A stretch of 64,000 nt of DNA from Camellia lanceoleosa (lineage: Eukaryota; Streptophyta; Magnoliopsida; Ericales; Theaceae). Each line of letters starts with the position of its first letter. Position 1 is the stretch's first letter. Shown here one piece after another: positions 8,798 to 62,561 of the stretch. The position numbers were made by a program, and so were the translations under genes. The notes under the pieces are model-generated. The model ran no database searches, had not been told where the DNA came from, and saw only the letters and a program-made list of their open reading frames with translations. The DNA lies in the NCBI GenBank assembly GCA_025200525.1, contig CM045759.1:1736001-1800000 (forward strand), written 5' to 3'.

Positions 8798-8930
8798 CGC
8801 TCGAGCATGACTTTGGATGCTCGAGCTGAGAGTCAAAACATGTGACTGGGCACTCGAGCGTAACTCCTCCCGCTCGAGCGGACATCAATGTCTAGAAAAC
8901 TTCAGGGAGTTAACATTTCACGCTCGAGCA
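8798..8930. repeat. CGCTCGAGCG palindrome cluster in E1
   Basis: Five copies start at 8798, 8818, 8851, 8871 and 8921. The first four form two doublets with starts exactly 20 bases apart (10 bp word, 10 bp linker). Variants such as CACTCGAGCG are mostly CpG transition products. Confidence 0.9.
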
Positions 8931-10086
8931 GACATCCTAAATTTTGGAATTTCCAGAATTGCATTTGAAGCTCAAACTTAGTATTCAAAGGTGCAAAGCT
9001 CGTGTTTTTGGTACAAAAACATGGAAAGTCAATGCATGGCATGAGAATATGGGTTGTTTGAGACCAATTGACTAAAACCATGATCTAATTCTCAAATCAT
9101 TTAACATTTTTCTTGGTATGGTTAAAGCACATGCATTCAAACTTCATACAAACTTCATATCTTCATGAATCATTTATGCATGTCAATTATTGACTCCAAT
9201 CCCTTTTCAAATACCACAAATGATGCTCAAAATTATAGAGTTAATTAAAATTATGCATGCATGTATGATTTGGTGTCATGTTCTTCATGTTTCAATAATC
9301 AACTTCTAATTACAACATAAATCCTTAGAATTGAGTTTCATATCATGATAATTCTAACATGCATGTAGTAAAGGACTCTCAAATTAACATGAACTACATG
9401 TTTCATGCTCAAATATGCAAATTCATGGCAATTTCTTACATGCATGTGTACATTGACTTCAATTTCATCAAATTCAACTTAATTCTTGCTCTTGGTCACA
9501 TAACAAGCTAGAATTCATTCAAGAATGAACTTAAACTCATGAAATTGAGTTCATTTACTCACCTAGGAGTTCAAATCTTCCAAATTCTAGCTAGCTCTTA
9601 GAATTAACCTCCTCAATTTCAAGCTCTTAGTTCAAATCCCCAATTTTGTGCTCCCTCTTTTTCTACAATCGGCTCACTCTATCTCTAGAGTGTTTATTTT
9701 AGATTTTTGAGCTCCAAGAAAAATGAATATAAGTGTAATTAGGCCCTTATATAAGCTTGCCTAATCAAATTTGATTAGGGCTAAGTAATGGTGCTTAATT
9801 CAACTAGTTTAAACTAATTAATTCGTTTTGAATCAGTTTTCAATTAAATTTCACCATAGGCTCTAAAAATCAAGTCAATCACAATAATACAGTCAATTTC
9901 AGTTTTTGAAACCTCTACGGTCTTCAATTTTCAAGTTATCACAGTAAGTTGGACAGATTTTCCTACGGTGAACAGATATAGTTTCAAACACATGAATAAT
10001 CACATAATTACCACTAAAAATCATATTGAACATATAATCACAATCATAATTAAGATTAATTAGCATAACATGGGACGGGGTTATCA

Positions 10087-10947
10087 GAACAGACAGGGTT
10101 ATTAGAACGGATTAATTAAGATTAATTGTGGAAGAGTCTACAAAGAGCAATGGGAACAGAATTGAGATTCAGTACTGCATTCCATCCATAAACAGATGGA
10201 CAATCAGAACGGACCATACAGACTTTAGAAGACATGCTCAGAATGTGTGCTTTAGATTTTCAAGGGAGTTGGGAAGATTATCTGCTACTAGCAGAGTTTG
10301 CATACAATAACAGCTAGCTTTGTATGGTAGACGGTGTAGATCACCAATTTGTTGGACAGAAGTCGGGGTAGGGGCCTGAAATTGTGCAAGATACTTCTGA
10401 GAAGATCAAAACTATTTAGCAAAGGCTCAAGATAGCTCAGAGTCGGCAAAATAACTATGCAAATGTTTGAAGAAGACCTCTTGAGTATGAGGTTGGTGAC
10501 CACATGTTTACTTGCGTGACCCCGATGAAAGGCCAAGTAAGATTTGGTAAGAAAGGAAAATTGTCGCCTCATTATATTGGGCCATTTCAGATTCTGGAAA
10601 AACTTGGTCCAGTTGCTTATAGAGTTACCTTGCCATCGGGATTCGAGCAAATCCATAATGTATTTCATGTGTTGATGTTGAGGGGTTATCTTCGGGATCT
10701 GTTGCATGTAATTGATTATCACCAGATAGCTCTTGATGAAAATATGGAATACGCGGAATGGCCGGAACGAAACATTGACCAGCAAGTGAAACAGTTGAGA
10801 AGCAAGTCTATCCAGATGGTGAAAGTGGAATGGAAAGAACACTATGGGATGGATGCTACATGGGAGAAAGAGGATGAAATGCGACTACACTATCCATATT
10901 TGTTTCCCGACGAAGGTAAAATAAGTTTGGAGGACCAAACTTCCTAA
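10087..10947 (+). pseudogene. 'E2' pol C terminus: end of integrase core and chromodomain
   Basis: From about 10150 the plus strand reads the end of a Ty3/gypsy integrase core: an [14 protein letters not shown] motif, broken by TAA where Gln is expected, then '[19 protein letters not shown]'. After frame breaks around 10320-10500, an open stretch (10504-10947) holds 'MKGQVRFGKKGKLSP', 'HNVFHVLMLRGYLRD' and the chromodomain-like 'VKVEWKEHYGMDATWEKE', then stops after 'SLEDQTS'. It matches the same region of B and F. Everything upstream (gag to integrase N terminus) is absent, so this is a 5'-truncated remnant belonging to the plus-oriented LTR that follows. Confidence 0.85.
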
Positions 10948-10959
10948 AGGAAGGAAGAC
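10941..10959 (+). other. polypurine tract before LTR E2
   Basis: AAAGGAAGGAAGAC precedes the LTR start TGTGATAACCC, which fits the plus-strand primer of an element in plus orientation. Confidence 0.65.
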
Positions 10960-11292
10960 TGTGATAACCCTATTCCGTATCATGCTAATTAATCTTAATT
11001 ATGATTGCAATTATGTGTTTAATATGATTTTGAGTGCCAATTGTATGATTATATGTGGTTTTGAATTTCTATCTGTTCACCGTAGGAAAATCTGTCTGAT
11101 TTTCTGCTTTAGAATTTAAATTGAAGGCCTTATCGGCCACAGAAACTGAAATTGACTATGCCATTGTGATTGGCGTAATTTTTAGAGCCTATGATGAAAT
11201 TTAATTAGAAATTGATTTGGATCAAATAATTAGATTCAGAATGATTAATTAAACTCTATTATTTAACCATAATCAATTTGAATAAGAAAGCC

Positions 11293-11300
11293 TATATAAG
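11293..11300 (+). promoter_or_regulatory. TATA box of LTR E2
   Basis: TATATAAG lies 333 bases into the LTR. The equivalent minus-strand box in E1 is at 9746-9753, at the same distance from its LTR start. Confidence 0.7.
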
Positions 11301-12009: not shown

Positions 12010-12233
12010 CACTCGAGCGGGGTAATGGCCGCTCGAGCGTGAAATGCTAGCTCCCAGCAGTTTTGCAGACAATGTCGTTCGCTCGAGCGAGGAGAACCAT
12101 GCTTGAGTGTCCAAGGCATATGTTTGACCCTCAGCTCGAGTGTCTGAATTAGCACTCGAGCGTGAATATGAGGCAACTAGTACTTTTGCAGACCATGGGG
12201 GTCTGCTCGAGCGAAGGATCCAACGCTCGAGCG
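12010..12233. repeat. CGCTCGAGCG palindrome cluster in E2
   Basis: Eight copies form four doublets with starts 12010/12030, 12080/12100, 12133/12153 and 12204/12224, each exactly 20 bases apart. Linkers differ in sequence (for example GGGTAATGGC and AAGGATCCAA) but are all 10 bases. Confidence 0.9.
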
Positions 12234-14530: not shown

Positions 14531-15023
14531 CCTTAACAGCAATTCTTAGCATCTCCTTGAATTTGAGTTCAATCTCCAAATCTTGAACCAATTCCTTTAC
14601 TCTCACCCTCTCTCACGTTTTTGGAGCTTAGGGGACTCAAAGATGCATGTAGATGGAAGAAAGGAGTGAGTGGAAGTGCAATGAGACCACTAAGGCTTTA
14701 AACCAAAAGTGTGCTTAATAGGGTTAATTAGTGGGCATTAATTTAATCTAATTTAATCGCTCCAAATCGAATTTCGATTAATCCTACCATAAAATTCTAT
14801 AAATCCTAATTAACACATAAATCAAGTTAATTTCTGGTTCGGACGCCGATAAGGCTTTCAATTCGTAAATCGAAACTAAAACATGAACAGATCTTTCTAC
14901 ACCTAACAGATATAACACCACAATGCAACACACACATGCATTTTAATTCAGAATTTTACCTTAATTACTAATTAGGCATAATTAATCACGGATTAACGTT
15001 AATCATGGGTCGGGGTTATTACA
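14531..15023 (-). repeat. 3' LTR of B, truncated to 493 bp
   Basis: Matches 21801-22294 with about 13 differences by hand count, 12 of them transitions. On the minus strand it starts TGTAATAACCCC after the polypurine tract. The rest of the LTR (the counterpart of 19761-21800) is missing. Confidence 0.9.
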
Positions 15024-15563
15024 GTCTTTCCCTCTTAAAAAAGTTTGGTCCTCCAAACTCGAATTACCTTCATTCTGGAACAATATTGAGTCCAATGGGA
15101 ACAAATCCGGATATCTCTTCATCATGTCTTCTTTTGTTTCCCAAGTTGCATAGGTTCCTCCGTGGTTTTGCCAATTAACTTTTACCAACGGTATTTCTTT
15201 ATTTCTCAATCTTTTGATCTTGCGATTCACAATTTGGATAGGTTTTTCCTTGTAAGTATAGTCATCCTTCAAGAGCACATGTGTTGGTTCAATGACATGG
15301 AACGGATCTCTCAAATACTCTCGAAGCATCGATACATGAAATGCATTGTGAATATGCTCCATTATCGGTGGTAAAGCTACCCGATACGATACTGGATTGA
15401 TCTTTTCAAGGATTTCGTATGGTCCAACATATCTTGGCGCCAATTTACCCTTAACACCAAATCGAGTTTGACCCTTCATCGGGATCACCTTTATGAACAC
15501 ATGGTCCTCAACTTCATATTCCCTATCTCTTCTTCGGACATCAGCATAGCTCTTCTGCCGACT
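15003..15563 (-). pseudogene. B pol C terminus: integrase end and chromodomain
   Basis: Continues the integrase frame past a TAA stop at about 15564, where Gln is expected. It holds 'DHVFIKVIPMKGQTRFG', 'GKLAPRYVGPYEILEK', 'HNAFHVSMLREYLRDPFHV' and the chromodomain-like 'VKVNWQNHGGTYATWE', then the C terminus with 'NSSLEDQTF'. The frame runs on past the usual end through the polypurine tract into the first bases of the 3' LTR. Apart from the stop before it, this piece is open. It should read chromatin marks and direct integration, as in other chromoviruses. Confidence 0.9.
15024..15042 (-). other. polypurine tract of B
   Basis: On the minus strand AAGAGGGAAAGAC directly precedes the LTR start TGTAATAACC. 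Confidence 0.7.
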
Positions 15564-17036
15564 TTATGCAGTTTTCAGACGTTGCTGGATCAGTTTCACT
15601 TTCTCGGTCGTTTCTTGCACAAGTTCCGGTCCCAACAGAGGTCTATCACCTACTTCAGCCCAACATATTGGAGAACGACATTGTCTTCCATACAAAGCTT
15701 CGTAAGGAGCCATTTCAATGCTTGAATGGTAACTATTGTTGTACACAAATTCAGCTAATGGCAAATAGGTCTCCCAACTTCCTTGGAAGTCTAACACACA
15801 CATTCTGAGCATATCCTCTAAAGTTTGATTAGTTCGTTCAGTTTGTCCATCTGTCTGTGGGTGATAGGCACTACTCAACCTTAGTTCTGTCTCCAAAGCC
15901 TGTTGCAAACTCTGCCAAAATCTCGATACAAACTTTGAGTCCCTGTCAGATACAATAGATACCGGTACACCATGCAATCTCACAATTTCGTTCACATACA
16001 AGTTAGCCAACTTATCCGCATTATAAATAGTTTTGACAGGCAGAAAATGGGCAGACTTAGTTAAACGGTCTACAATGACCCAGATAGAGTCCATACCTCG
16101 AGAAGAACGAGGCAATCCCACTACGAAATCCATGGTTATGTGCTCCCATTTCCATTCTGGTATTGGGAGTGGTTGTAGCAAACCAGCGGGTCGTTGATGT
16201 TCAACTTTAACCTGTTGACAATGCAGACACCTAGCCACAAAATCTGTAATACTCTTTTTCATTCCAGGCCACCAAAAATTCTGTTTCAAATTGTGATACA
16301 TTTTCATGTTCCCCGGGTGCACGGCAAACTTACTGCTGTGAGCTTCGGTCATCACACGTTTTCTTAAATCACAACAATCGGGTACACAAAGACGGTTTTG
16401 AAATTTCAGCACGTCATTCTCAAACACAAATCCTAGCCTCGGCTTTGAATTAAATTCCTCTATGATCTTTTTCAAGTATTCATCTTCGCATTGTTTTTGT
16501 TTGATCTCGTCAAGAATTGCAGGTTGAGCGGAAATAGCAGTTAAAATCCCACCTTGTTCTTGCACAACAATCTCAATCTCTTTATGTTCCAGGTCATCTA
16601 GCAGTTCTTTTCGACTGGACAGCAAGCATGACAAATTTGCACTGGATTTTCGGCTCAAGGCATCTGCTACGGTATTAGCTTTCCCTGGGTGATATAAGAT
16701 CTGCAAATCATAATCTTTGATTAACTCTAACCATTGCCTCTGTCTCATGTTTAATTCTTTTTGGGTGAAAAAGTATTTCAAGCTTTTATGATCTGTATAC
16801 ACCTCACAAGTTACCCCATACAAGTAGTGACGCCATATTTTCAAAGCAAACACCACAGCTGCTAATTCAAGATAGTGCGTCGGGTAATTCTTTTCATGAA
16901 GTCGGAGTTGTCGAGAAGCATAGGCAATCACTTTCCCGTTTTGCATTAGCACACATCCCAAACCTTTGTAGGAAGCATCACTGTAAACTTGAAACCCATC
17001 AGTACCATTGGGCAAGGCTAAAATTGCTGCAGTCAC
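15564..17036 (-). pseudogene. B pol: RNase H and integrase, open for 490 codons
   Basis: The longest open stretch in the window. RNase H occupies about residues 15-130, with '[11 protein letters not shown]' (first catalytic Asp), '[11 protein letters not shown]' (Glu), '[11 protein letters not shown]' (Asp) and 'ADALSRK' (last Asp region). Integrase follows: zinc-binding H-H-C-C from '[11 protein letters not shown]' to 'CLHCQQ' (about 232-272), and a core with 'TMDFVVGLP', 'SDRDSKF' and '[13 protein letters not shown]' supplying D, D and E. It ends at a TAA in place of a Gln codon. Upstream the frame is cut from RT by a TAG, also at a Gln position. All catalytic residues look intact, so the loss is recent. 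Confidence 0.93.
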
Positions 17037-17111
17037 TAACCTGGTTTTCAGTTCTTGTAAGGCTGTCTCTCTTTGTTCGTTCCAATCAAATGATACATTT
17101 TTCTGAGTTAA

Positions 17112-17627
17112 CTAGGTCAATGGCATGGCAAGCTTGGAAAAGTCTTTTACAAATCTTCTGTAGTAACCTGCAAGTCCCAGAAAACTTCTAATCTCTGTCA
17201 CATTTGTCGATTTAGGCCAATTCACAATAGCTTCAATTTTTTGAAGGTCAACAGAAACACCATCTTTGTTGATTACATGACCCAAGAATGCTACACTGTC
17301 AAGCCAGAATTCACATTTGGACAATTTAGCATATAATTTCTTTTCTCTCAAAGTCTGTAGGGTAATTTTCAAATGATTCTCATGTTCTTCCCTGCTTTTG
17401 GAATAAATCAGGATATCATCAATAAATACAACAATAAATTCATCCAGAAATGATTTAAACACTCTGTTCATAAGATCCATGAAGGCAGCAGGTCCATTGG
17501 TCACCCCAAACAGCATTACTAAAAATTCATAATGTCCATATCTAGTTCTGAATGCAGTTTTCTCTATGTTTTCAGCCTTAACCTTTAATTGGTGATACCC
17601 AGATCTGAGGTCAATTTTGGAAAATAC
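17112..17627 (-). pseudogene. B pol: RT palm and thumb
   Basis: After a TAA at 17628 (Gln position) the minus strand reads '[13 protein letters not shown]', then an open stretch from 17516 with '[19 protein letters not shown]', the catalytic '[12 protein letters not shown]' (the FIDD form of the YxDD box), '[15 protein letters not shown]' and '[19 protein letters not shown]'. It stops at a TAG at 17112, again where Gln is expected. The active-site aspartates are present. Confidence 0.92.
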
Positions 17628-18200
17628 TTAGGCACCCTGAAGTTGGTCAAACAAGTCATCTATTCGGGGAAGAGGGTATTTGTTCTTGATAGTTACTTTG
17701 TTCAATTCCCAATAGTCTATACATAGCCTCAAAGACCCATATTTCCTTTTGACAAATAGGACCGGAGCACCCAAAGGTGAAGTGCTCAGACGGATGAATT
17801 TCTTATTTAGCAGTTCCTGAAGTTGAGTTTTCAATTCTTTCAGTTCTGAGGTAGACATTCTATAGGGAGTCTTGGAAATAGGTTGTGTTCCTGGAAACAC
17901 CTCAATAGTGAATTCAATTTCTCTATCAACTAAGTCCCCAGGTAAGTCATTCGGAAACACATCGGGAAATTCACAAGCAACAGGGATAGTTTCTACATTA
18001 GTACCGTCCGATGATACAGTCAGTATACAACACAAATAACTCCTACATCCCTTCATAAGTAGTTTTCTGGCTTTCAGAGCTGAAATTAGATACGGGGGAG
18101 GAACTACCCCATTCCCAATAAAAATAAATTCAGGCATACCTGGTGGTCTAAACACAACAGATTTACTTGCACAATCAATGGTAGCACAGTATTTAGTCAA
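17628..18200 (-). pseudogene. B pol: protease-RT linker and RT fingers
   Basis: An open stretch of 190 codons. It begins with '[21 protein letters not shown]' at the end of the protease region. Then come '[12 protein letters not shown]' and the RT start '[20 protein letters not shown]', '[20 protein letters not shown]' and '[20 protein letters not shown]', followed by '[10 protein letters not shown]' and a stop. 'LSTSPLGAP' replaces the usual PSxSPWGAP, so a conserved Trp is lost. The frame start at 18200 lies just after a TAG in a Trp position. Confidence 0.9.
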
Positions 18201-18231
18201 CTAGTCCATCCCCAAAATGCAGTCAAAATGA

Positions 18232-18714
18232 TCAATGTTCAATGTTCAAGGGCAATAAGTCAATGTATAACATCATATCGCCAATCATAATGTCACATGC
18301 TGGATAAACATGAGCACACATCATAGAACTCCCAGACGGCGTAGATACAGATAACACATATGTCATAAGTTTTAATGGTCTAGTCAATTTTCGAGAGAAA
18401 GCATGCGATACAAAGGAATGTGTAGAACCAGAATCTATTAGTACACATGCATTTTGAGAACATGCAGAGAGTGTACCTAACACCACAGTATCGGTGTTTT
18501 GTACGTCACCGGGCACTAAGGCGAACACTCGACCGTGTCTCAGAGGTTTTTTCCCAGTATTGGCCTTTGCATTTGTTTTGGCCGTAAAAGCGAATCCAGC
18601 GGAACTTGCCGTAAGACGGCTAGCATTCTCAGACCTGAGTGGGCAATCCTTTATTACATGACCTGCTTGGCCACATCGGAAACAAGCACCGGATACTCGG
18701 TAGCACACACCCAT
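18232..18714 (-). pseudogene. B gag zinc knuckle and aspartic protease
   Basis: An open stretch of 160 codons. The CCHC knuckle 'CFRCGQAGHVIKDCP' lies at about residues 11-25 and would bind the RNA genome. The protease active site 'VLIDSGSTHSFVS' is at about 90-102. The reading frame fails at 18232 because of an 8 bp tandem duplication (two copies of the TTGAACAT unit at about 18232-18247), which puts a stop right after 'LLPLNIEH'. Protease would cut the polyprotein inside the virus-like particle. Confidence 0.9.
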
Positions 18715-19546
18715 ATGTCTTCTTCCATAATCAGAACAGACCGAGATAGACCCACTACTCTGACTCGAGTTACTTGTAGACCTCGTGTTCTATTTCTTAT
18801 TGATATAAGACCGTCCTCTTCTAAAACCAAGCCCAGACCTTTTCTCTCTCCAATCAATTGTTGTAGCTGCTGGGGCTTTACTTTGTTTCATAGCGGCTAT
18901 GGTGGCTTCCGCCATTAAGGATTTGTCTAAAACTTCCACATAAGTAGGCAATTTTAATACGCCCACCCCATCAAACACCTCTAAATCCAGTCCACCTTCA
19001 AATTTTCGTGCTTTCTTGTAATCAGTATCCACCATATATGGAGCAAACCGTGCCAGTTCGGTGAATTTGGCTTCATACTCTGCTACAGACATTCTTTCCT
19101 ATTTAAGTTCTTGAAACTCAGACATTTTCCGATCCCTGAAACATTGGGGAAAATATTTATCATAGAAGACCGCATTAAACTGTGCCCACATCATATTCCC
19201 ATTGCCACTTCGAATTAGTAACCACCACATTCGGGCTTCATCCTTCAGAGTATAGGTGGCCAGGAGGACTTTCTGGATTTCAGAACAAGGGAACACCTCA
19301 TATAGCTTTTCCATTTCAAGTAACCACGTCTCCGTTTTCAACGGTTCAATTCCACCATAGAATGTCGGCGGTTTCATTTTCATGAATTCTGTGTCAAGTT
19401 GATGATATCATTATTATTTTCTTCAGCTTGTGCTGGCGGAGGTGGAGGGGGCAAAGGTTGTTGTCTTTGCTGTTGTGTCAAAGTTTCATTCGACCCATGC
19501 GAGCCTTTGAAGATTCACTTACATCACTTCCCCTTGGATTCTCCAT
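18715..19546 (-). pseudogene. B gag (capsid region), broken
   Basis: A start ATG at 19546 opens 'MENPRGSDVSES', followed by a Gln/Pro-rich stretch with frame shifts to about 19385. The capsid part then reads 'PPTFYGGIEPLKTETWLLEME' (19370 down), 'FNAVFYDKYFPQCFRDRK', a TAG at 19099, 'MSVAEYEAKFTELARFAPY' and a second TAG near 18792. Both stops replace likely Gln codons. Typical retrotransposon gag, forming the particle that packages element RNA. Confidence 0.85.
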
Positions 19547-19757: not shown

Positions 19758-20396
19758 CTCTATCACGACCCAAACCCGCCCTTGTAGGTTTAGCATCATA
19801 ACCGGCCAGTAACCTGCGGATTACCAAAGGCCTCTTGACAGATAAGCATATAAGAAGGGGCTGCGGAAGCAGATGTACAAAACATAAATAGTCCAATGAG
19901 CTGTGTCGATAAACTTGGGACATAAAAGTTCAAAACTTATATATACATAAGTGTGTCGGTCAAAGGATATCATAATTACAAAACATTTACACGAGTGTAA
20001 TATCTAGGACCCAATTGTACAAAACAGACAGAAACTAACATACGCACAAAAACAGCCATAACTAGACTTCAATCGGAACTTCCTCGGGAGGCACAACGGT
20101 TGGCTGACAAAAACAGAAATGAAGGCCGTCAACTGTGGCCCTGATCACGCGCCGACTCATCTACATACATAATATAAACTATAAGCGAAAGCTCAGTGAA
20201 CAATAACAGAGTAAAGGGGTTTCAATGAATGAGTCCGTACAGATTCAGAAATCGTAATTCAGTTTCGTGTCAAATTCATAATTTGGCCAGATCATATACA
20301 GAAATCATGAGGTACGTTTAAGTATACGTGATATATCCCTTAGCATTAACAGAGCAGGTACAGAACATATACAGACACGTGAGGGTTACGAATAAC

Positions 20397-20535
20397 CAGT
20401 TCCATAAAGGAACCTCCGGATCCGGGTAACAAAGAATAAACACGCTAAGCCCCATGACGGAGCCTCCGGTACGGGTAACAGAGTGCAGACAGATTAAGTT
20501 CCGTGATGGAACCTCCGATACCGGGTAACAGCCAA
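20397..20535. repeat. tandem array of about 60 bp CCGG units in the B LTR
   Basis: Three imperfect copies of a unit containing GGAACCTCCGGATCCGGGTA, drifting to CCTCCGGTACGGG and CCTCCGATACCGGG. CCGGATCCGG is a perfect palindrome. It occupies the LTR position that holds the GGCC array in E and G. Confidence 0.85.
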
Positions 20536-20945
20536 CATATATCACATGATGCTAAGGATGTCACGAATATATATCAGAAATTGGACAATCATTAATTGTA
20601 CAGAACATATCATTTCAGAAAACAGATCTTAATTCATCATATAGAAAATAAGTAAAGTTGAACATAGCTTTACTAAATTATTACTCACAGTTGGCCTTGA
20701 GACAGATAGACGGAGCAGATTGGTTAAACGGTACGCGGCACATGACCTATATAACACATAACAGACACATACTTGAACACACACGTTCTAATTGTACATA
20801 ACTTACTTCGTTGGCTCTTAGTGTGTTTCTAACCTTTAATTCTCATTATGGAATCTTAAACATGGCCTAGGGATGCCTAGGATGGAATGAGGATGCAAGA
20901 ATGCATTGGAAAATATTTCATGAAACTTGCTGAAAATAAGGTCCA

Positions 20946-21266
20946 CGCTCGAGCGTAGCTTTCCCCGCTGGAGCGGACATGCAGACAATGAAGCTCCGCT
21001 TGAGTGTGACTTTCCCCGCTCGAACGAACAGTAAACTCTTGAAAAAGTACTGGATGCATGATTTTCACGCTCGACGGGCACTCAACCTACGCTCGAGCGT
21101 GAGACTCAGAACCTCGCTCGAGCGTGGATTCTCTCGCTTGAGCGGACTGTAAAACACAAGAACTTCTGAGTATATGCATTTCACGCTTGAACGTAGACAT
21201 CGTCGCTCGAGCGGAAGTGTATGTACTCAGAGTGTACGCTCAAGCGTGAAGCTCCCCGTTCGAGCG
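20946..21266. repeat. CGCTCGAGCG palindrome cluster in the B LTR
   Basis: Twelve copies in six doublets: 20946/20966, 20997/21017, 21068/21090, 21115/21135, 21184/21204 and 21237/21257. Five doublets are exactly 20 bases apart and one is 22. Variants CGCTTGAGCG, CGCTCAAGCG and CGTTCGAGCG are C-to-T or G-to-A changes. Confidence 0.92.
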
Positions 21267-23620
21267 TGGATCAAAAATCTGGAATTTCCAGATTGATCCT
21301 CAAGCTCAAAACTCAACCCCAAAAGCATTAAACTCGATTTTTCTGGGCCAAAACTTGAGAAAATACATGAAGACCCTTAAAACAACATGAATTAAAGATC
21401 CATTCAAGAAGTCATGGTTTAATGGTTTGCCAATTGTACAAAATTCCAACACAAACTTTATGAATATGTCATTAATACAATATGCAAGAACTTGAATTCA
21501 AACACTCCAAACATAATCAAACTTGGTAATTTAATGGAAAACAAGATGAATGACCGAAATGTAAGTGAGGTTAACACATGCATGAAAGAAACCTTTGAAA
21601 TCATGCTCAATTTGTGAGAAAATGTACATGCATGCATGGTATGATCCATTTCTCCCCAACTCTAGTGCAATTCCTACTTAAATTCACTTAATTCACCAAT
21701 TATCTTGTAGAATCTAAGTTAATTACTCAATTAAGAGTTTAGTCCCTTACCTAGAGGCTTCAATCTACAAAATTAAGGTTGAGGCTCCACAAATCTTCTT
21801 CAATTAACAACAATTCTTAGCATCTCCTTGAATTTGAGCTCAATCTCCAAATCTTGAACCAATTCCTCTACTCTCACCCTCTCTCACGTTTTTGAAGCTT
21901 AGGGGACTCAAAGATGCATGTAGATGGAAGAAAGGAGTGAGTGGAAGTGTAATGAGACCACCAAGGCTTTAAACCAAAAGTGTGCTTAATAGGGTTAATT
22001 AGTGGGCATTAATTTAATCTAATTTAATCGCTCCAAATCGAATTTCGATTAATCCTACCATAAAATTCTATAAATCCTAATTAGCACATAAATCAAGTTA
22101 ATTTCTGGTTCGGACGCCGATAAGGCTTTCAATTTGTAAATCGAAACTAAAACATGAACAGATCTTTTTACACCTAACATATATAACACCGCAATGCAAC
22201 ACACACATGCATTTTAATTCAGAATTTCACCTTAATTACTAATTAGGCATAATTAATCACGGATTAACGTTAATCATGGGTCGGGGTTATTATAGATACA
22301 TCTCTCCACAACGTAATGCCATTTTACCAGACACCAGTTGAAAGGGAATGGTACCTCTGCCAATTCTTCAGGCGCTAGCTAGAAGGTAATGGTACCCCTG
22401 ATTCTCAGCGCATTACGCATTTTTCCAACCATCTCGTTATATAACATTCATAGACAATTCAAGTGTACTACAGACACACAACCCTTTCACATTCACAATG
22501 TCATCCTCCACCGATGACCAAGGAAAAAACCTCTACGCAACATGTATTCAACTTACGCATTAATAACAATAATTCACATGAACCTTTAGATCCAATTACA
22601 ACAATAATGAAATTAAATATTTGTGATTCAATCCCAAGTTAATTTCCGAAACTCACACAATGTTAGCATTTCATTCTTCCATTTCAAAATCAACTATCTT
22701 ATTCTTCCTCATTAATATTCTCCACCCTTTGCCTTAATCCATTAATTTCCCTTCGCAACAAGAAAATATGACCAAAACAATTTTTCCTTTATTTTAAATA
22801 AGGGATTTCCAAAATCATGGCAACAAGGTTATAATTACTCAATTTCTATTTAATGGTAGTGTAACCCAGTAATATTCAAAGTTCAAGGTTAAATCCATTC
22901 TTTTCAAGGTACACATTATCAATTCACAACAATCAACTTGAACAACTCAACACCAAGTAAATGTTGGGAATTCATGAGGCTCAATAAATTTCTAATAATT
23001 CAACAATTCATCTTTTAAACCCCTACATTCATAACATGTTTATTCCACAATTAAAACCCATTTTTATCCCATGAGCATTTTTATAAAAAAAAAAAAAATA
23101 GGGCTTCACCCCCCTCTCTACATAAACAAATTAAACAGCTAACCAAAATTAATCCTACAACAATGATTTTCCCAAAAACTCAACCTCACACAACTCAACT
23201 TAGATCCCCATTCATGATTTTCAAAAGAAATCCATAATAACATGGTTTTTATGCAATATGAACATACCACATGTCTATCTATAGGTGAAGCATTGTAGAA
23301 AATCAAAGAAATCCCTACCTCAAGAGAGAAAAGGAGAAAGAGCTCAAAAATCAACTCTGCCAAAATACGATCTCCACCGGTCAAGACAAAGCCCCCGACA
23401 CGCTTATCATTTTGGTATAAGGGACTAGCACCAAAATCTCAATGGATTTCTTGAGATAAAAGAAGATACAAGATTTTGAGGGTTTGGGTAGAGAGAGATG
23501 AGAGAATAGAGAGAAACATATTGTAGAGAGAGAGTGATATAATCTGAAATAGGAGGAAAAGGAGCAACAGTGCAAAATATAGCTGAAAAGCACGAAAAAC
23601 GAGATTGAGTACGTGCTTGG

Positions 23621-35534: not shown

Positions 35535-37573
35535 TGTAACGCCTCTAAATTAATTAAATTAAAACATTTCTCATAACCTGATTAATCCGAAATCTTTCCA
35601 AACTAAACAATAACATTAATCTCAAAAGTCCTCTTTTTCCATTGAATTACATATCAGAAATTACAATTTTCATATTCTTGTCTTAGTAATCATACCATTT
35701 ACAAAGTTAAAGAAACTAAAGAATAAAAATAATAATGCCTTAATGGCGTACAAACATCAAGGTAAGGCCTTGTTACAACAAAATAAGCATGCGGTCCCAA
35801 ACACATATGCTCGAAGATTCCACATAACACATGAGCTTTCGTGTCCTAACAAAACAAAAAAGTCCACCTCCTTCTCATAGGGGTGATTGCACATCATCAA
35901 TTCCTGAAATTGTTAGATAGGAATGAGTTTCATACTCAGTAGAATTACTTTTAATAAAGTATCTAATTATTTGAAAATTCATATGGCATTATCACAACCA
36001 AAACATTTTCTTGTTCAAATCATGTTAGGAGTTTAAGCAACAAAACTTAGATATTATAATTTTCATGAAAATCACATTTCAATACTGGAGGGTAAATACA
36101 CCATGAAGTCCCTAAAGAGAGTTCCAATACATACATATACAAGTTTGTAAAGAAACTATCCCCACATTTACCGACTACAATATTGCAAGACGTAGGCACC
36201 CAAAATTATCTGTTTTTCTACTTTTGTCGACTATTATACGGCAGGACCAGTGGACATCCAAAAATATTTTTCCACATTCGTCCAGCGATATGTGTATACA
36301 GGGCAATTCACACCTTCACTCCCCGTGTAGGTACCAACAACACAACTCTTTTAAAAAACCGACTCCCTACCTGGACTCACATGCTATTTACCACCCCCTT
36401 AAACAATCTTTCCAAGATTTTCACAAATTTCAAGAATTTATACATCTATAAGAACAAAGGTAAATATCACCATTCAAATAATTGAACTATTATGGAGACA
36501 TAATCTTCATATTTCCAAAGAAAAATCTCAAAAGTTTTTAATTTCACGAGTCTCAAATCAAAATACATCTCAATCTCATAATTCAATCATAAATTTAAAG
36601 AATTGAAAGTTAATTCCATTTGAGCATGTCATTGTTCAATTTCAAGAATTGGGATTTTCATTAAATTTGGGGCTTTTGCCCCTCCATCATATTAAATGCT
36701 ATTTCTCAACTAAAATCTCCATAATTCATAGCCATTAATATAAATTTTAAGAAAATGTAGAGAAAATTTCATTTTTGAAACAAAACCCAATTTTTGTAAA
36801 CTCAAACATCAATCACAAAACCAATGTCACAATAATACCAATAAACATCCTCAAAATAAAGAGATACAAAATTAAAAGTAATCGCACCTCCAAGATGAAA
36901 GGAAAAAAGCTAGATCAAGAGGATTCTTTCAAGAATCCAAAAATCCAATTGGCCAAAATGTTGATCTTCGCTTGTTCTTCACCTTTGATGCAAGATCCAT
37001 GGTGGATTGTTGGTAAAAAATGGATGAAATCAAGGTTTGAAGGTCAAGGGTTTCGGTATGGAGGAGAGGAGAGAAAAGAGGAAGAAAGAATAAAGATTTT
37101 GGACCAAAAACTCATTTTAAAGTACTTGATATCAAACAGATCGCTCGAGCAGTCAAAGCTTGGCTCGAGCGGTGAAAAGAAGCTCCTAAAATTTCTAGCC
37201 CAAATCGCTTGAGCGGTCAAAAGTTCGCTCGAGCGGACTTGCTTCTAGCACAGATACTCAAATTTCAAATATGCATAACTCTCTCGTTCAGACTCCATTT
37301 TAGGTTGTTCTTGTGTCCAAATCGAAGCCCTGGAAACAAGCTTTCCAATGGATCTAGCCTCATATCCAAATTCAAAATGTGAAAAGAAAAAATGGCAAAA
37401 GAGTGAAGACTATTCATGGGACAATTATTCAAATTAATATTTTTTGGTCCAATCTTACTTTACCATCATGATACCACCTCAATCAATATTCCAAAATGAA
37501 CCAACGAGACTTCAAGTACAATAAATAGAGTGTCAAGAGCGAACCCACTAGTCTAATAAGTATAGGTGTTACA
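35535..37573 (-). repeat. 3' LTR of the LARD element, 2039 bp
   Basis: Plus-strand ends are TGTAACGCC and AGGTGTTACA, so TG...CA. It contains the shared U3 block (37258-37425), the palindrome cluster (37142-37235) and one copy of a segment that is duplicated in the other LTR. An antisense open stretch (36775-37212) runs through the palindromes and is not regarded as a gene. Confidence 0.9.
37142..37235. repeat. CGCTCGAGCG palindrome cluster, LARD left LTR
   Basis: Two doublets, 37142/37162 and 37206/37226, both exactly 20 bases apart. The linkers are GTCAAAGCTT and GTCAAAAGTT. It lies about 340-430 bases into the LTR on the minus strand, just downstream of the shared U3 block. Confidence 0.92.
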
Positions 37574-43429: not shown

Positions 43430-43528
43430 CGCTCGAGCAGTCAAAGCTTGGCTCGAGCGGTGAAAGAAGCTCCCAAAATCTTTGAAATTCGCACAGACCA
43501 CTTGAGCGGTCAAAAGTTCGCTTGTGTG
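43430..43528. repeat. CGCTCGAGCG palindrome cluster, LARD right LTR
   Basis: Doublets 43430/43450 and 43499/43519, each 20 bases apart. The second has decayed to CACTTGAGCG and CGCTTGTGTG, yet the 10-base linker GTCAAAAGTT is unchanged. Confidence 0.88.
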
Positions 43529-46689: not shown

Positions 46690-47335
46690 TTGTGCATATG
46701 TATATGAGTTTGTACTAACATTCCGTATCTTGAACATTCATTGTTTGCCACTTATTGAATATGTACGAGGATCGAGCTGCTTGGTCAGCTCGCAGGGGTC
46801 TAGGGGGTAGCACCCAAGTGGAGACAAGGAGCAGCGCCCCTATAGCCAAAGTTGTTTGATCGCTCGAGTGGTCATTTGTGCGCTTAGCGATGATGTGGTT
46901 CATCCAGTATCTCTACCTGTGCTCTGAACTTCTGAGAAAGATGTTTCACTGCTTGAGCGGTGGATATTGCGCTCGAGTGTTGGCTTATATGTTTTGCACC
47001 GCCTTTAGTTGCACTACTCGAGCGGTAAAGTGGTGGCTCAAGCAATCTTCACGACTATGTTTAGTATAAAGTGCACCATTTATTATTTTTAGGATTGAAC
47101 CTATCTAGATTCTCAGAGAGGAGTAAAAAAAGTATTCTATATTGGAAGATTGTTTATATGAGTTTCCTTGATGTATAAAAAGTGATCGATTGATCAATGA
47201 ATTACATAGTGTCAAACATCAAGGGTTGTTTTCATTCTTTCATTCACATAAAGAGAAAGGTATTCTTCAGTAAATTCAGGAGAACTTGAGCCTGAATTTT
47301 TGTTAGATTCCAAAGTGGCTCATTGTCATAGATTC
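46690..47335 (+). mobile_element. LTR-like fragment with palindrome doublets
   Basis: A GC-rich phrase 'GGGGTCTAGGGGGTAGC' (about 46796) is followed by six CGCTCGAGCG-type words (46861-47044), then a TATAAAAAG-like box (about 47174) and 'TCAATGAATTACA', resembling the promoter half of an LTR in plus orientation. It is not alignable by eye to the Tekay or LARD LTRs apart from the palindromes. No ends or duplication were found. Confidence 0.5.
46861..47044. repeat. CGCTCGAGCG palindrome cluster
   Basis: Three doublets, 46861/46881, 46950/46970 and 47015/47035, all 20 bases apart. The second word of the first doublet has lost one base (CGCTTAGCG). Confidence 0.88.
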
Positions 47336-56318: not shown

Positions 56319-57978
56319 TGTCACGACCCAAACCCGGCCCTATGGGTTTAGCACCGTAACTGGCCAGTAATCTGTGATTACCAAAGGCCTGCTTAACAAT
56401 CATACAATATAAACAGAGTTCAGGGCCTGGCGGAAGCCAAAACAATAAATGAATAGTGTCCAATGAGCTGTGATAATCTGTATGCCAAAAATATTTTTCA
56501 TGCATTCAAACAGTTCGGTCTAACGACCATTACAGTCAGTTAGTACAGGGATCCAATCCCTTGACAACAGTACAATACATAAATTTCCTCGGTGTGGTTC
56601 TATGTCCAAATCCTCATTAAGATGCCTTAAACTAGGCCTAAGAATGCTTAGGATGGGATGAGGATGCAAAATTACACTTGGAAGGCATTTTTCAAAAGTT
56701 GCTGGAAATAGGCACCTCGCTCGAGCGAGCCTTCCTTCGCTCGAGCGAGCTTCCAAAATCAAAGGCTTCGCTCGAGCGAACAATCCTTCGCTCGAGCGGA
56801 AAAATACTGGTTGCTCGATTTTTACGCGCGATACCACGCTCGATGCTCGCTCGAGCAAGCTTGCAAAATCAAAGGGCTCGCTCGGCGAGAATCCTTATTT
56901 CGGCGAGGAAGCAAAATCTGGAATTTCAGTTGTCTCCCAAGTTCAAACCAAGCATTCAACCATCCAAAACTCAACCTCCTGGGCCCAAAATCTGGGAAAA
57001 CACTTCAAACTCAATGTACTTCAAGTTTTAAAAGCCAATTTGTACATGCAAGGCCCAAGAGTTGATCAATCAAAGCCATTTTCAAACCCAAATTCAAGAA
57101 CACTTTGAAAACATGAAATGCATGATCTTCAAACCAATTTTCAGCTTTAAATCTTGCTCTAGAGAGCTCGATAGTTTAAAAACAAACTGAAAACATGGAT
57201 TCTTACATAAATATGGGCATGCATGTGACCATTAACCATGAAATCAACCCAAAATGCCTCAATATAAACATGTAACATTCAAGCTTCAATTCAACATTTT
57301 TTGGACCAAATCATGCCTCAACTCTACAATGTAACTATCTCATGCAAGAACTAGCTTAGAGACAACATTAAGAAGGTAAAATCCTTACCTAAGTCTTCAA
57401 TCACAAGTGTAAAGGCTCAATCAAGCAAGAACTCTTCTTATCTTCTTAATTTCCAAGCAAGATCAAGCAAAATGAGATGAAATCTCCCTCAATACTCTCC
57501 TTCTCACTCTAATTCTCTCCTTGGTCGGTTGGGGCTAAGGGAAATGGCTGCTCAAGATGTTTGTTAAGTGTGGTAAGGCTCTAGAAGAATAGTATTAAGC
57601 AAAGCCCACCCAATGGCATAATTGTAATTAAGGCAACTCTTTAATTTGCTCAATTTAATCTAATTTAATCATTCCTAATCAATTTTCAGATAATTATACC
57701 ATAAAATCACAAATATTCTACTGATTATAAAACACTAAACGGTTCTCCGTTCGGCCGCCGATAAGGCCTTCAATTAGCAGTTTAAACATAAAGTACAAAC
57801 AGATAAATCATATAAGTCAACAGATACAATATGCAATATAACAGACAACTTATTCAATTTAAGTTTTGCTTTCAATCGATCTATTCAATACTTCAATTAG
57901 TTCGATAATCAATCATTATCAGTTCAGTTTAGCGATAATCAGTATATAATTCGGCAATCAATAGCGAGGGTCGTTACA
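56319..57978 (-). repeat. 3' LTR of F, 1660 bp
   Basis: Plus-strand ends are TGTCACGACCC and GGGTCGTTACA, so TG...CA. It is shorter than the LTRs of B, E and G: the tandem array between the two conserved boxes is absent. It holds the palindrome cluster and 'CGGTTCTCCGTTCGGCCGCC' near 57738, shared with G. Confidence 0.9.
56718..56915. repeat. CGCTCGAGCG palindrome cluster in the F LTR
   Basis: Doublets 56718/56738 and 56769/56789, each 20 bases apart with perfect words. More decayed copies follow: GCTCGAGCA at about 56847, CGCTCGGCG at about 56880 and TTCGGCG at about 56909. The shortened form lacks the central A. Confidence 0.88.
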
Positions 57979-57998
57979 GTCTTCCCTCCTTATAATGA
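57979..57998 (-). other. polypurine tract of F
   Basis: On the minus strand AAGGAGGGAAGAC precedes the LTR start TGTAACGACCC. Confidence 0.65.
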
Positions 57999-58000
57999 GT

Positions 58001-58468
58001 TTAGTCCTCTAAACTCGAGTTACCTTCATTCTGAAAGAAAGCAGGATCCAATGGAAACAAATTAGGATATCTCCTCATCATATCATCTTCCCTTTCCCAA
58101 GTGGCATACACGCCACCATGATTCTGCCAGTCAACTTTCACTAACGGAATTTCTTTGTTCCTCAGTTTCTTGATCCGTCTGTTTACAATCTGTATAGGCC
58201 GTTCCTCGTAAGTGTAGTCATCACTCAACACTATCCGAGTAGGCTCAATCACATGAAACGGATCTCGAAGATAGTCTCTCAACATCGAAATGTGGAAGAC
58301 ATTATGCATATGCTCCATTTCAGGAGGAAGCGCAACTTGATACGCCACCGGATTGATTTTCTCAATAATTTCATATGGTCCGACATACCTCGGCGCTAAC
58401 TTGCCTTTGACTCCAAAACGAGTCTGGCCTTTCATTGGTGTCACTTTCACAAAAACGTGATCACCCAC
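58001..58468 (-). pseudogene. F pol C terminus: integrase end and chromodomain
   Basis: An open stretch of 155 codons: 'GDHVFVKVTPMKGQTRFG', 'GKLAPRYVGPYEIIEK', 'HNVFHISMLRDYLRDPFHV' and chromodomain-like 'VKVDWQNHGGVYATWERE', ending after 'NSSLED'. It is very close to the same part of B. It is intact in itself but lies downstream of broken integrase. Confidence 0.9.
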
Positions 58469-59317
58469 TTCATATTCTCTATCCCGTCTTCTGACATCCG
58501 CATAACTTTTCTGTCTACTTTGTGCAGTTTTCAGTCTCTATTTGTATCAATTTCACTTTCTCGATCGTTTCATATACAATCTCGGGCCCAACAGCGGCCC
58601 ATCTCCAACTCTTGGCCCGGATTGGAGATCTACACTTTCTGCCATACAAGGCCTCGAAAGCGCCATACCAATACTCGAATGGTAGGCTGTTGTTGTGGCG
58701 AATTGACCAATGGCAAATGACTTTCCCAATTTCCACGGAAATCAAGGACACACATTCTCAATAGATCCTCCAAAGTCTGAATGGTCCTTTCGGCCATCTG
58801 TCTACGAGGATGATAGGCACTACTACCTCAATTCGATTGCAATCACGGTCTGTAGGCTCTGCCGAAACCTCGATGTAAACTTGAATCCTGTCGAAACAAT
58901 AGATCTGAGCACTCCATGCGATCTCACAATCTCATCAATATAGATAATGACCAATTTATGCGCATTATAAATTGTCTTGGGTAGGAAATGTCTTGATTTA
59001 GTCGTCTATCAACAATAACCCAAATTGAATCCATACCTTTCCTGGAGCGAGGCAATCCAACGATAAAATCCATCGTGATATGCTCCCATTTCCACTCGGG
59101 TATGGATAAGGGTTGCAGTAAGCCCGCGGGTCGATGATGTTCCGCTTTGACTTGTTGGCAATGAAGACATTTGGATACAAAATCGGCAATTTCTTTCTTC
59201 ATTCCCGGCCACCAGAAATTCTGTTTCAGATCTTGGTACATTTTCGTATTCCCCGGGTGAATAGACAATTTGGAATTGTGGCCTTCTTGCAGAATTCTTC
59301 CTTCGATTCAACTGTCA
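58469..59317 (-). pseudogene. F integrase, broken
   Basis: Pieces in different frames: zinc-binding region with '[20 protein letters not shown]' and '[18 protein letters not shown]' (59268-59130), core with 'TMDFIVGLPRS' (first Asp), and later 'EALYGRKCRSPI' (near 58650). Several one- or two-base losses shift the frame at about 59010, 58870, 58800 and 58620. The region that should hold the second Asp and the Glu (about 58960-58780) is scrambled. Not functional. Confidence 0.85.
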
Positions 59318-60052
59318 TTACAGTCTTTCTTGAAATTTCAATACATTATTCTCAAATTTGTAACCCGGTCTCGGTTTAGACTTTCTTTCTTCGATGATCT
59401 TTTTCAGAAAATCATCCAGTTGTTGTTTCTCTTTGACCTCCTCAATCAAGGCTGGTTGGGCAGAAATAGCAGCTATGGTTCCACCTTGCTCTCTCAAAAC
59501 AATCTCAATTTCAGATCTTTCAAGATCATAAAGCAGTTCTTTCTGCCCGGTGAGCAAACAAGCTAAGTTAGCAATTGACTTTCGGCTCAATGCATCGGCA
59601 ACGGTATTGGCTTTTCCCGGATGATACAAAATTTGCAAATCATAATCTTTAATCAATTCCAGCCATCTGCGCTGTCTCATATTCAATTCTTTCTGAGTGA
59701 AGAAATATTTCAAACTCTTGTGGTCAGTATATACTTCACATGTTGCCCCATACAAATAGTGACGCCAAATTTTTAAGGCAAATACCACTGCAGCAAGTTC
59801 CAAATCATGTGTTGGGTAGTTCTTTTCATGTGGTCTCAACTGTCGGGAGGCATAAGCAATAACTCTCCCATTCTGCATCAAAACACATCCCAAACCTTTA
59901 TGAGAAGCATCACTAAATACAGTGTAACCATCCGTACCTGAAGGTAAGGTCAGAATCGGTGCAGTCACAAGTCGGGTTTTCAATTCTTGAAATGCCGATT
60001 CCCTTTGGTCAGTCCAGTCAAATGATGTCCCCTTCTGAGTCAATTGAGTCAA
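59318..60052 (-). pseudogene. F pol: RT end and RNase H, open for 244 codons
   Basis: Begins '[16 protein letters not shown]' at the RT end. RNase H has '[11 protein letters not shown]', '[14 protein letters not shown]', '[12 protein letters not shown]' and 'ADALSRK', so all four acidic positions are present. It then runs into the linker before integrase and is cut by a frameshift near 59318. It is very similar to the RNase H of B. Confidence 0.9.
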
Positions 60053-61027
60053 TGGTAAGGCAATTTTCGAGAAATCTTTGACAAACCTTCTGTAATATCC
60101 GGTAATCCCAAAAGCTTGGACTTGATCACATTTGTTGGTCTAGGCGATTCACTCTGGCTTCAATTTTCTGCGGATCAACAGAAATCCCATCTTTACTAAC
60201 AACATGTCCCAAAACATAACATGGTCAAGCCAAAATTCACATTTAGGCAGTTTAGCATCTGGTTTACATTCTCTTAAGGTTTGCGGGGCAAGTCTCGAGA
60301 TGATGTTCATGTTCTTCTCTACTTTTAGAATAAATCGGTATGTCATCAATGAACACCACAATAAAATCGTCAAGGTATGGTTTGAAAATTACATTCATAA
60401 GGTCCATAAATGCATTTGGGGCATTAAATGACTCCAAATGGCATAACTAAAAATTCATAATGGCCATACCTCGTTCTAGCGGTTTTAGCAATATCTTAGA
60501 TTTTACCTTGATTGGTGATACTGATCGAGATCAATCTTGGAAAACACTTGTGCACCTATGGCGATCAAATAAATCATCAATCTGTGATAGGATACTTATT
60601 CTTTACAGTTACCTTGTTCAATTCACGATAATCAATGCACAATCTCAATGAGCCATCTTTCTTCTTTACAAATAAAACCGGTGCACCCCACGGTGAAGTA
60701 CTGGGCCTGATAAACTTCTTGTCTAACAGTTCTTGTAGTTGCACCTTCAATTCCTTCAGTTCAGTTGGAGCCATTCTATAAGGAGCCTTGGACACTGGCT
60801 GTGTTCCCGGAATCACATCGACGATAAATTCAATCTCCCTGTCAATCAAATCCCCTGGCAGATCATCTGGAAATACATCTGGGAATTCTCTGACTATAGG
60901 AATACAATTCACATCAGTGTTAACACTATCAGTAGACACAGTCAATATAGAACAGAAATACCCTTTACACCCCTTTCTAATCAGTTTCAAGGCTTTCACA
61001 GAAGAAATCAAGTACGGGGGAGGTACC
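60053..61027 (-). pseudogene. F pol: RT, broken
   Basis: The first part (61011-60577) is open: '[20 protein letters not shown]', '[15 protein letters not shown]' and '[20 protein letters not shown]'. After 60577 there are several small indels. The catalytic box region near 60350 reads with frame shifts and a changed 'DDIPIYS'-like end. 'CEFWLD' survives at about 60230. The 5' end of this piece (61027) is one side of the solo LTR G insertion. Confidence 0.88.
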
Positions 61028-61599
61028 TGTCATGACCCGAACCCGCCCCTATGGGTTAAGGCCATAACCGGCCAGTAATCATGAGATTACCTACGGCCTC
61101 AAACCAAATAGGACAAAACTCATCAGAGTAAAAGGGGCCAAACGGAAGCAAATTAAAAACTTTGTCCATAGAGCCGTGCTTATATGCACATCAAACATTC
61201 CAGACATACATATGTTAATAACTCACATGTAAAGCATAGCAACATAAATTTACGCAGAGCGGGATCATTCAAAATTGAGTCAACCAAACAAACTATACAT
61301 AGGCGTACTCAAAACTTCGACATGACAACATAGAAACGAGCGACATAAAGCGAAGGCAAGTCTCGTCGTGAGGCCATAGTGACTCTCCAAAATTCTTGTT
61401 GTTCCACAGACTTCATCGAGGTGGGTTTGGACTTCCCTTAGCTCACCTACAAACACATGAATGAGCGAAAGCCCGATGAATAATATCAAATAAAGAACAT
61501 ATTTTGGAACAATGTGTATCAAGCGGCCTTGGGCCCAATTTGCATTTCTAACTAATACATACATACATAGACATATGTAAATTAAATGCGAGGTTCCAA

Positions 61600-62040
61600 A
61601 CACATCATACGGCCTCGGGCCCAATTCATTCATGTCCATCGGCCTTTGGCCCAATTATTCATTTCCATCGGCCTTCGGCCCAATTATTCATTTCCATCGG
61701 CCTTCGGCCCAATTATTCATTTCCATCAGCCTTCGGCCCAATTATTCATTTCCATTGGCCTTCGGCCCAATTATTCATTTCCATCAGCCTTCGGCCCAAT
61801 TATTCATTTCCATTGGCCTTCGGCCCAATTATTCATTTCCATCGGCCTTCGGCCCAATTATTCATTTCCATTGGCCTTCGGCCCAATTACACTTTCGTGT
61901 CAAAACGGCTCTTAGGCCCACATTTATATCAAACGGCCTTCGGCTCATATTTTATCAATCTGGCTCATAGGCCTTCCATTTCAAACTGGCACATAGGCCT
62001 TTCATATCAAACTGGCACATAGGCCTTTCATATCAAACTG
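61600..62040. repeat. GGCC-hairpin tandem array in G
   Basis: About nine nearly identical 28-29 bp units with TCGGCCTTCGGCCCAATTAT, followed by diverged units and three copies of a unit with 'AAACTGGCACATAGGCC' (from about 61983). Long open frames across it (FGPIIHF-type) follow from the repeat and are not genes. Confidence 0.93.
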
Positions 62041-62355
62041 TCCACCATTCAAATGAATGAACTTTACAAAACTTACATAAGAGTAAGCAAATGGGACAAT
62101 AACATAATTTAGATATTACTCACAGTGATCGGCTTGCAGATTTGCCCTGGAGCTTGACCCTATACATCACATAACATATACGGGTCACAATTTAACTCAA
62201 TCCGTTCTTTAATTCACATATTCCTCTTTAGGCTTATTCTTGTCCCATTAACTCATTTACAATGCTTAACATATGCCTAAGAGTGTTTACAGGTGAAAGA
62301 GAACGGAAAACAGAACACAGAATGCATTAACAGAATTTCAGCAAAACAGGGTCCC

Positions 62356-62561
62356 CGCTCGAGCGCACACTTTCCCTTTCGGCGGAGACGAAAGCAGTAC
62401 CGCTCGGCGTGAGTTCTTCCGCTCGGCGATGCGCAATATCTTGGATGCTCGAAAACCCCGCTCGAGCGCGAATATCTCCGCTCGAGCGCACAGTACAAAA
62501 TATGCAACAAATGCTGGAAGCTTGATTTCTCCGCTCGAGCGCGAATTCCTCCGCTCGAGCG
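62356..62561. repeat. CGCTCGAGCG palindrome cluster in G
   Basis: Doublets 62459/62479 and 62532/62552 are perfect words exactly 20 bases apart. A word at 62356 has a decayed partner at 62376. A pair at 62401/62420 uses the 9 bp form CGCTCGGCG. Confidence 0.92.

What the first reader, a model, noticed from the sequence alone, without database searches (positions are those of the whole stretch)
8798..62561. CGCTCGAGCG palindrome doublets at a fixed 20 bp spacing in many LTRs
I count 22 doublets of the form CGCTCGAGCG, 10 bases, CGCTCGAGCG with starts exactly 20 bases apart, in E1, E2, B, F, G, both LARD LTRs and an LTR-like fragment at 46861. Linker sequences vary but stay 10 bases, even where the words have decayed. 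Most variants are CpG transition products (CTTGAG, CTCAAG, CACTCGAG), so the ancestral word had three CpGs. The spacing is two helical turns, so both words face the same side. A 20-base period is not a codon multiple, so this is not a coding repeat. It looks like an arrayed protein-binding site, perhaps comparable in principle to the motif arrays bound by VANC anti-silencing proteins of VANDAL transposons; that analogy is inference.
Basis: partly seen in the sequence, partly recalled or inferred. Interest (0 to 1): 0.88.

Follow-up and report, generated by a model that had tools for sequence, protein, structure and literature searches.

The report
Paired palindromes in retrotransposon LTR promoters
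A plant genome holds tens of thousands of pairs of one 10-letter palindrome set exactly 20 letters apart; those examined lie mostly in the control region of one group of jumping genes, in one branch right beside the transcription start signal, and look like docking sites for a protein not yet identified.

Summary
The window holds 21 CGCTCGAGCG doublets by my rule. The 3.0-Gb plant genome (Camellia, inferred) holds 62,164 exact doublets with a 10-bp linker, against 1,510 for gaps 0-9 combined; reversed-word control 0. Where checked, arrays lie in LTRs of Ty3/gypsy chromoviruses (Tekay/Del-like by recall) and mostly form CpG islands. In one sublineage a TATA box follows the last word, at 9-10 bp in 91 of 100 listed places (628 sites, control 1); in the other no TATA box was found. 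In ten aligned arrays non-CpG word letters (0.91) are better conserved than linkers (0.59) or flanks (0.67). A hairpin is not supported: compensatory pairs 432, non-compensatory 453 and 521. Linker centres are AA/TT in 108 of 166, oppositely oriented in the two sublineages. Best reading: promoter-proximal arrays of dimeric sites for an unidentified host protein. The closest published case is not VANC but the palindromic motifs before the TATA box of Sireviruses (PMC2829016). New variant of a known kind. No binding or expression data.

The parts
8798..8930 (-). E1 LTR word array (5 words, 2 doublets)
12010..12233 (+). E2 LTR word array (7 words, 4 doublets)
20946..21266 (-). G element 5' LTR word array (12 words, 5 doublets), preceded by CTGGAAATTCCAGATTTT on the LTR strand
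19760..22294 (-). 5' LTR of element G (inner end approximate); followed by a TGGTATCAGAGC primer-binding site at about 19757 (-)
15006..18789 (-). G element frames: zinc knuckle, protease, RT, RNase H, integrase, chromodomain-like end, in several open pieces
37142..37235 (.).
43430..43528 (.). Array in the second of these repeats (2 doublets, one decayed)
46861..47044 (.). Decayed array in the LTR-like fragment (2 doublets)
56718..56857 (-). F element 3' LTR array (5 words, 2 exact doublets)
57998..61027 (-). F element pol remnants, split from their upstream part by a nested solo LTR
61028..63721 (-). Solo LTR nested in F's RT gene; target duplication GTACC on both sides (61023-61027, 63722-63726)
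62356..62561 (-). Word array of the solo LTR (5 exact words, 2 exact doublets)

Best explanation
The doublets are the upstream activating region of the LTR promoter of Tekay/Del-like Ty3/gypsy chromoviruses. Each palindrome is probably bound by one protein dimer; two dimers sit 20 bp (about two helical turns) apart on one face of the DNA and bind cooperatively across a linker with an A/T step at its middle. Several doublets form a roughly 130-320 bp CpG-rich array next to the core promoter and recruit a host transcription factor. Shown by sequence: the words, the exact pairing, conservation of non-CpG word letters above the surroundings, position in LTRs where checked, position mostly 9-10 bp before a TATA box in sublineage B, the CpG-island property. 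Inferred: that a protein binds, that it is host-encoded, that it activates transcription, and that methylation of the CpGs modulates it.
For: Spacing: 62,164 exact doublets at gap 10 against 1,510 for gaps 0-9 together. In 32 type-B arrays chosen by word+TATA and not by doublet (20 of them the two LTRs of 10 elements), adjacent spacing is 20 in 136 cases, 21 in 1, 19 in none, while most other spacings scatter over 25-52. Conservation: in 10 aligned type-A arrays, seeding doublets masked, mean pairwise identity is 0.908 at non-CpG word letters, 0.742 at CpG word letters, 0.587 in linkers, 0.629 in spacers, 0.667 outside; non-CpG word letters against outside p = 2e-9, CpG word letters against outside p = 0.05. 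Promoter position: word-N{5,25}-TATATAAA at 628 sites, control 1; 91 of the 100 listed have gap 9 or 10, four more gap 11; twelve neighbouring pairs of places lie 6.9-7.6 kb apart in the same orientation, as LTR pairs would. In 10 B arrays collected before that search, 7 have a TATA-like box within 40 bp after the last word, against 483 of 9,960 background windows (the expression was chosen after looking). A CAGATTTTGG-like block (at most 3 mismatches) lies within 40 bp before the first word in 31 of 32 B arrays and similar blocks precede many A arrays. A 200-bp CpG-island window is found in 32 of 32 B pieces (the best one overlaps the array in 30) and in 14 of 15 A arrays tested, against 5 of 24 flanks. 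Linker centre AA/TT in 108 of 166 distinct linkers.
Against: Type-A arrays, including the E, F, G and solo-LTR arrays of the window, show no TATA box in the 40 bp after the last word (0 of 23; for one, L004, that call read the wrong stretch, and one search shows none there either); their promoter is unlocated. No binding, expression, methylation or start-site data. Aligning a tandem array can place words on words, which inflates word identity. Within 10 LTR pairs the non-CpG word letters differ at 11 of 417 sites against 166 of 3,927 outside, a modest difference that the word definition (at most 2 mismatches) also favours. The orientation control (TTTATATA after the word) did not complete. A conserved site could also bind a repressor.
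Confidence: 0.6

Rival explanations
1. Anti-silencing or CpG-island protection: the arrays are bound by a factor that keeps the LTR unmethylated (as Sp1 sites do in some animal cases, or VANC in VANDALs) rather than by a classic activator.
For: Arrays form CpG islands; [quoted passage not shown] Cruz et al. suggest escape from silencing for Del CpG islands and mention Sp1 sites (passages of PMC4029996).
Against: CpGs in the words decay: 56 of 623 word CpG letters differ between LTR pairs, against 166 of 3,927 non-CpG letters outside, and 120 of 172 word changes are CpG transitions, so inherited copies are not fully protected. But word CpG letters differ less than CpG letters outside (34 of 180), a comparison biased by how the two classes were defined. 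No VANC-like frame was identified, in a limited search.
Confidence: 0.2
2. RNA or single-strand hairpin: two copies of a palindrome 10 nt apart form a 10-bp stem with a 10-nt loop, which is what selection keeps.
For: Any perfect doublet can fold this way; the 3' LTR copy would be in the genomic RNA. In 235 distinct doublets 10 compensatory changes against a shuffled mean of 6.3, not significant (98 of 1000 as high).
Against: Compensatory pairs are not in excess genome-wide: T5..A6 432 against T5..T5 453 and A6..A6 521 (the mirror class A6..T5 was not counted). 2 of 181 mutated doublets remain fully complementary. Loop sequences differ between sublineages.
Confidence: 0.05
3. Neutral tandem duplication: a 20-bp or larger unit was duplicated in an ancestor and the words are simply what is left.
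For: Spacers within sublineage A share a recognisable common plan.
Against: Non-CpG word letters are the best conserved part while linkers of fixed length diverge to 0.587 identity; sublineages A and B share words and spacing although the rest does not align at E 1e-4 with words masked.
Confidence: 0.08
4. Nucleosome positioning or insulator array with no specific activator.
For: A/T step midway between GC-rich words.
Against: Nucleosome signals do not need an exact 10-letter word; phasing beyond the pair was not shown independently of ancestry.
Confidence: 0.07

Closest known systems
Sirevirus (Ty1/copia) palindromic repeated motifs (RM boxes), Bousios et al. 2010, PMC2829016 (passages read)
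   Same: High-copy palindromes in plant LTRs, forming CpG islands shortly upstream of a conserved TATA box, flanks diverged
   Different: Here Ty3/gypsy chromovirus, core CTCGAG and not CGG-CCG, strict 20-bp doublets, constrained linker centre; no such pairing rule appears in the passages read
Plastic 5' CpG islands of Del LTRs, Cruz et al. 2014, PMC4029996 (abstract and passages)
   Same: Same retrotransposon lineage (Tekay/Del, by resemblance); CpG-rich, variable LTR region
   Different: They report no LTR CpG island in Del of the eudicots they studied, and a search of the text for 'palindrom' found nothing; here a presumed eudicot has an island built of palindromes
VANC target motifs of VANDAL transposons, PMC5735166 (passages), PMC10398659 (outline and abstract)
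   Different: DNA transposon (recalled), non-palindromic motif, element-encoded binder, no fixed pairing in the passages
ONSEN heat-response element bound by HSFA2, PMC3907296 (passages)
   Same: LTR site with dyad symmetry that recruits a host factor
   Different: nTTCnnGAAn element, known factor, no large array in the passages

Membership tests
Tekay/Del-like Ty3/gypsy chromovirus (the carrier) | PR-RT-RH-IN order with chromodomain-type integrase end | tested here: met
   In G: RVP_2, RVT_1, RNase H, Integrase_H2C2, rve (E 1e-5, below its cut-off), SH3_Tf2-1, Chromo (E 4e-4, below its cut-off), in this order
Tekay/Del-like Ty3/gypsy chromovirus (the carrier) | Placement with labelled Tekay/Del reference elements | not tested
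   No labelled reference used; the lineage name is recalled. Listed named relatives are mostly plant gypsy-type pols; highest identity among the 120 listed is Camellia sinensis, 72%
Sirevirus RM boxes | Carrier is a Ty1/copia Sirevirus | tested here: not met
   Gypsy-type domain order
Sirevirus RM boxes | Palindrome with CGG-CCG core | tested here: not met
   The palindrome is CGCTCGAGCG; one of their RMs (Tnd-1) also lacks the core
Sirevirus RM boxes | Boxes form a CpG island | tested here: met
   32 of 32 B pieces (best window overlaps the array in 30), 14 of 15 A arrays tested; flanks 5 of 24
Sirevirus RM boxes | TATA box shortly downstream | tested here: inconclusive
   Met in type B (7 of 10; 628 sites); 0 of 23 type-A arrays
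VANC-type anti-silencing target | Element encodes the sequence-specific binder | tested here: inconclusive
   10 of 24 listed window ORFs scanned; none matched a binder, 4 matched nothing; shorter or spliced genes not excluded
VANC-type anti-silencing target | Binding causes loss of methylation | not testable with these tools
   Needs methylation data
RNA hairpin element | Compensatory changes between the two arms in excess | tested here: not met
   432 against 453 and 521; 10 against 6.3 shuffled, 98 of 1000 as high

The most novel reading that the evidence does not exclude
The 30-bp unit (palindrome, 10-bp linker with a central oriented A-step, palindrome) is one composite site for an undescribed tetrameric plant DNA-binding protein, and two long-separated chromovirus sublineages in one host have converged on it, or passed it between their LTRs, as a host-specific promoter key. 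In support: the sublineage-B element L020 groups with Vitis and Malus relatives (100/99) apart from the sublineage-A elements (one element, a broken 207-residue piece), published Del LTRs of eudicots including Vitis lack a CpG island (PMC4029996, passages), and the linker core is kept in opposite orientation in A and B. Common ancestry with loss elsewhere is not excluded.
Probability: 0.25. Interest if true: 0.82.

Novelty: new variant of a known kind. Interest (0 to 1): 0.62.

Why it matters
It gives a precise, testable cis-element (word, spacing, linker rule, distance to TATA) for an abundant class of repeats in this genome, with some 62,000 exact natural copies for measuring binding and methylation. 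It suggests that palindromic boxes before an LTR TATA box are not confined to Sireviruses and may have evolved more than once in plants. Finding the binder would show how these repeats are switched on.

Tried and rejected
Hairpin reading: not supported. Helical phasing between doublets: strong in all arrays but lost with one array per family, so not claimed. Exact doublets in viral contigs: two records in GC-rich DNA, taken as unrelated. Looking for the array in other plants: no relative in viral contigs; one plant-like fragment in a bacterial assembly that ends within the LTR, with no exact word visible in the parts printed. Word in print: 420 papers hold CGCTCGAGCG; the 20 listed titles concern unrelated laboratory work (probably primers with an XhoI site; papers not opened). 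A first linker count had hand-slicing errors and was replaced. Further papers of which I saw passages only, with nothing on such arrays in them: PMC6911290, PMC12786077, PMC12016029, PMC11656987. Ten literature searches were answered; "not found in the papers read" rests on these alone.
Full report
What is there. It is G000:C2:1736001-1800000 of a 2,999,249,670-base genome. Contig lengths seen run from C1 (226 Mb) to C15 (133 Mb), with C16 only 2.5 Mb (C10-C12 not looked at). Fifteen chromosome-sized contigs, 3.0 Gb and a Camellia sinensis protein as the hit of highest identity among 120 listed (72%) make me infer a Camellia species. Element G encodes zinc knuckle, protease, RT, RNase H, integrase and a chromodomain-like end and has a TGGTATCAGAGC primer-binding site. 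I call the group Tekay/Del-like from recall.

More than chance. Exact doublets with gap 10 number 62,164; gaps 0-9 together 1,510; gaps 11-40 together 52,756, about two thirds of the listed ones at gaps 20-22 or 40; reversed controls 0, 0 and 1. In the window, 20 arbitrary 10-kb pieces and L025, adjacent words lie 20 apart in 42 cases, 19 or 21 apart in 2 each. Seven of the 20 pieces carry an array of at least 3 words; five of these tie to a chromovirus LTR, pol or primer-binding site (L011, L015, L018, L020, L023), two do not (L009, L012). Pieces with other gypsy-like pol (25-35% identity to G: L010, L016, L017, L021) hold no word with at most 1 mismatch.

Anatomy. In type-A LTRs the array starts about 1.0-1.2 kb from the LTR start, follows a CTGGAAATTCCAGATTTTGG-like block, and is followed by a CCTGTTTTCAGNAAATTTTG-like block without a TATA box. 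In type B, for instance L020, a polypurine-like stretch about 240 bp after the integrase end marks the LTR start (placed by eye; my start expression did not match), the array begins some 190 bp later, and TATATC follows the last decayed word. Genome-wide, 628 words are followed after 5-25 bp by TATATAAA (300 and 328 on the two strands, control 1), 91 of 100 listed at gap 9 or 10; a pyrimidine-rich stretch comes next in those displayed. The 32 arrays fetched for these sites have 3-12 words, and 31 have a CAGATTTTGG-like block (at most 3 mismatches) before the first word.

Linker. Among 166 distinct linkers the central dinucleotide is AA/TT in 108, AG/CT in 22, AT in 15, TA in 1. On the LTR strand, 22 type-A arrays read RRGRAAKTCA (centre AA 38, AG 10, AT 9, TT 2 of 68 doublets) and type B RGSRTTTYKW (TT 41, GT 11, AA 0 of 59 distinct linkers): the same RAA core in opposite orientation. 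This agrees with a symmetrical pair of bound dimers that tolerates either orientation, though one old inversion would give the same picture.

Conservation. In ten aligned type-A arrays, non-CpG letters of the word are identical in 0.908 of pairs, CpG letters in 0.742, linkers 0.587, spacers 0.629, outside 0.667; CpG word letters do not clearly exceed the outside (p = 0.05). Between the two LTRs of ten type-B elements differences are 166/3,927 (outside, non-CpG), 34/180 (outside, CpG), 56/623 (word CpG) and 11/417 (word non-CpG). So words decay after insertion, CpGs fastest, while between lineages the non-CpG letters are kept. The word and CpG definitions bias these counts.

Descent. With words masked, 37 arrays of at least 4 words fall into 5 clusters (24, 10, 1, 1, 1). 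An RNase H tree of 20 rows (three from this genome, and 17 of the 19 named plant proteins chosen from the 120 listed) places the type-B element L020 with Vitis and Malus (100/99) and the type-A elements G and F with Camellia (96/96). This rests on one broken 207-residue type-B piece. Together with the report that Del LTRs of the eudicots studied, Vitis among them, lack CpG islands (PMC4029996, passages), it leaves open either loss elsewhere or gain in this host by convergence or LTR exchange. No other plant genome could be searched here.

Mechanism. The best reading is a promoter-proximal array of dimeric sites for a host activator. Not shown: binding, the factor, the effect on transcription, the start site in type A. 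The hairpin reading fails its test. A protective or anti-silencing role remains the main rival.

Known relatives. Sirevirus palindromic RM boxes (PMC2829016, passages) are the closest match in design: palindromes, CpG island, TATA box just downstream. Two defining features, the Ty1/copia carrier and the CGG-CCG core, are not met, so this is not a member; it works like them. VANC targets match only in being arrayed short motifs.

Novelty. New variant of a known kind: a different superfamily, a different word, and a strict 20-bp pairing with a constrained linker centre, on a scale of tens of thousands of copies.

Noticed in passing
window 61610-61889, 8191-8395, 12579-12849: Tandem repeats of about 29-68 bp with a GGCC-NNN-GGCC part (GGCCTTCGGCC, GGCCAAAGGCC) in the LTR portion downstream of the array.
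   Followed up: no
window LTRs E1, E2, G 5' LTR and the solo LTR, about 230-280 bp downstream of the array: Conserved CTGTGAGTAA, like a 5' splice site, in four of five LTRs; possibly a leader intron.
   Followed up: no
L054 (BMWJ01000031.1): A contig titled Streptomyces clavifer reads as a plant-type gypsy pol and LTR fragment, apparently contamination.
   Followed up: partly
L018: 13 copies of AACGCGTC in one arbitrary genome piece, with a 38-bp repeat spacing.
   Followed up: no
window 14533-15024 and 21804-22295: The two LTRs of element G are 97.4% identical over 492 bp, so it is a young insertion, yet only 4 of its 12 words are exact.
   Followed up: partly
type-A arrays, e.g. L037, L042, L045: Half-words (GTCGAGCG and the like) at 11-bp spacing recur inside the arrays.
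   Followed up: no
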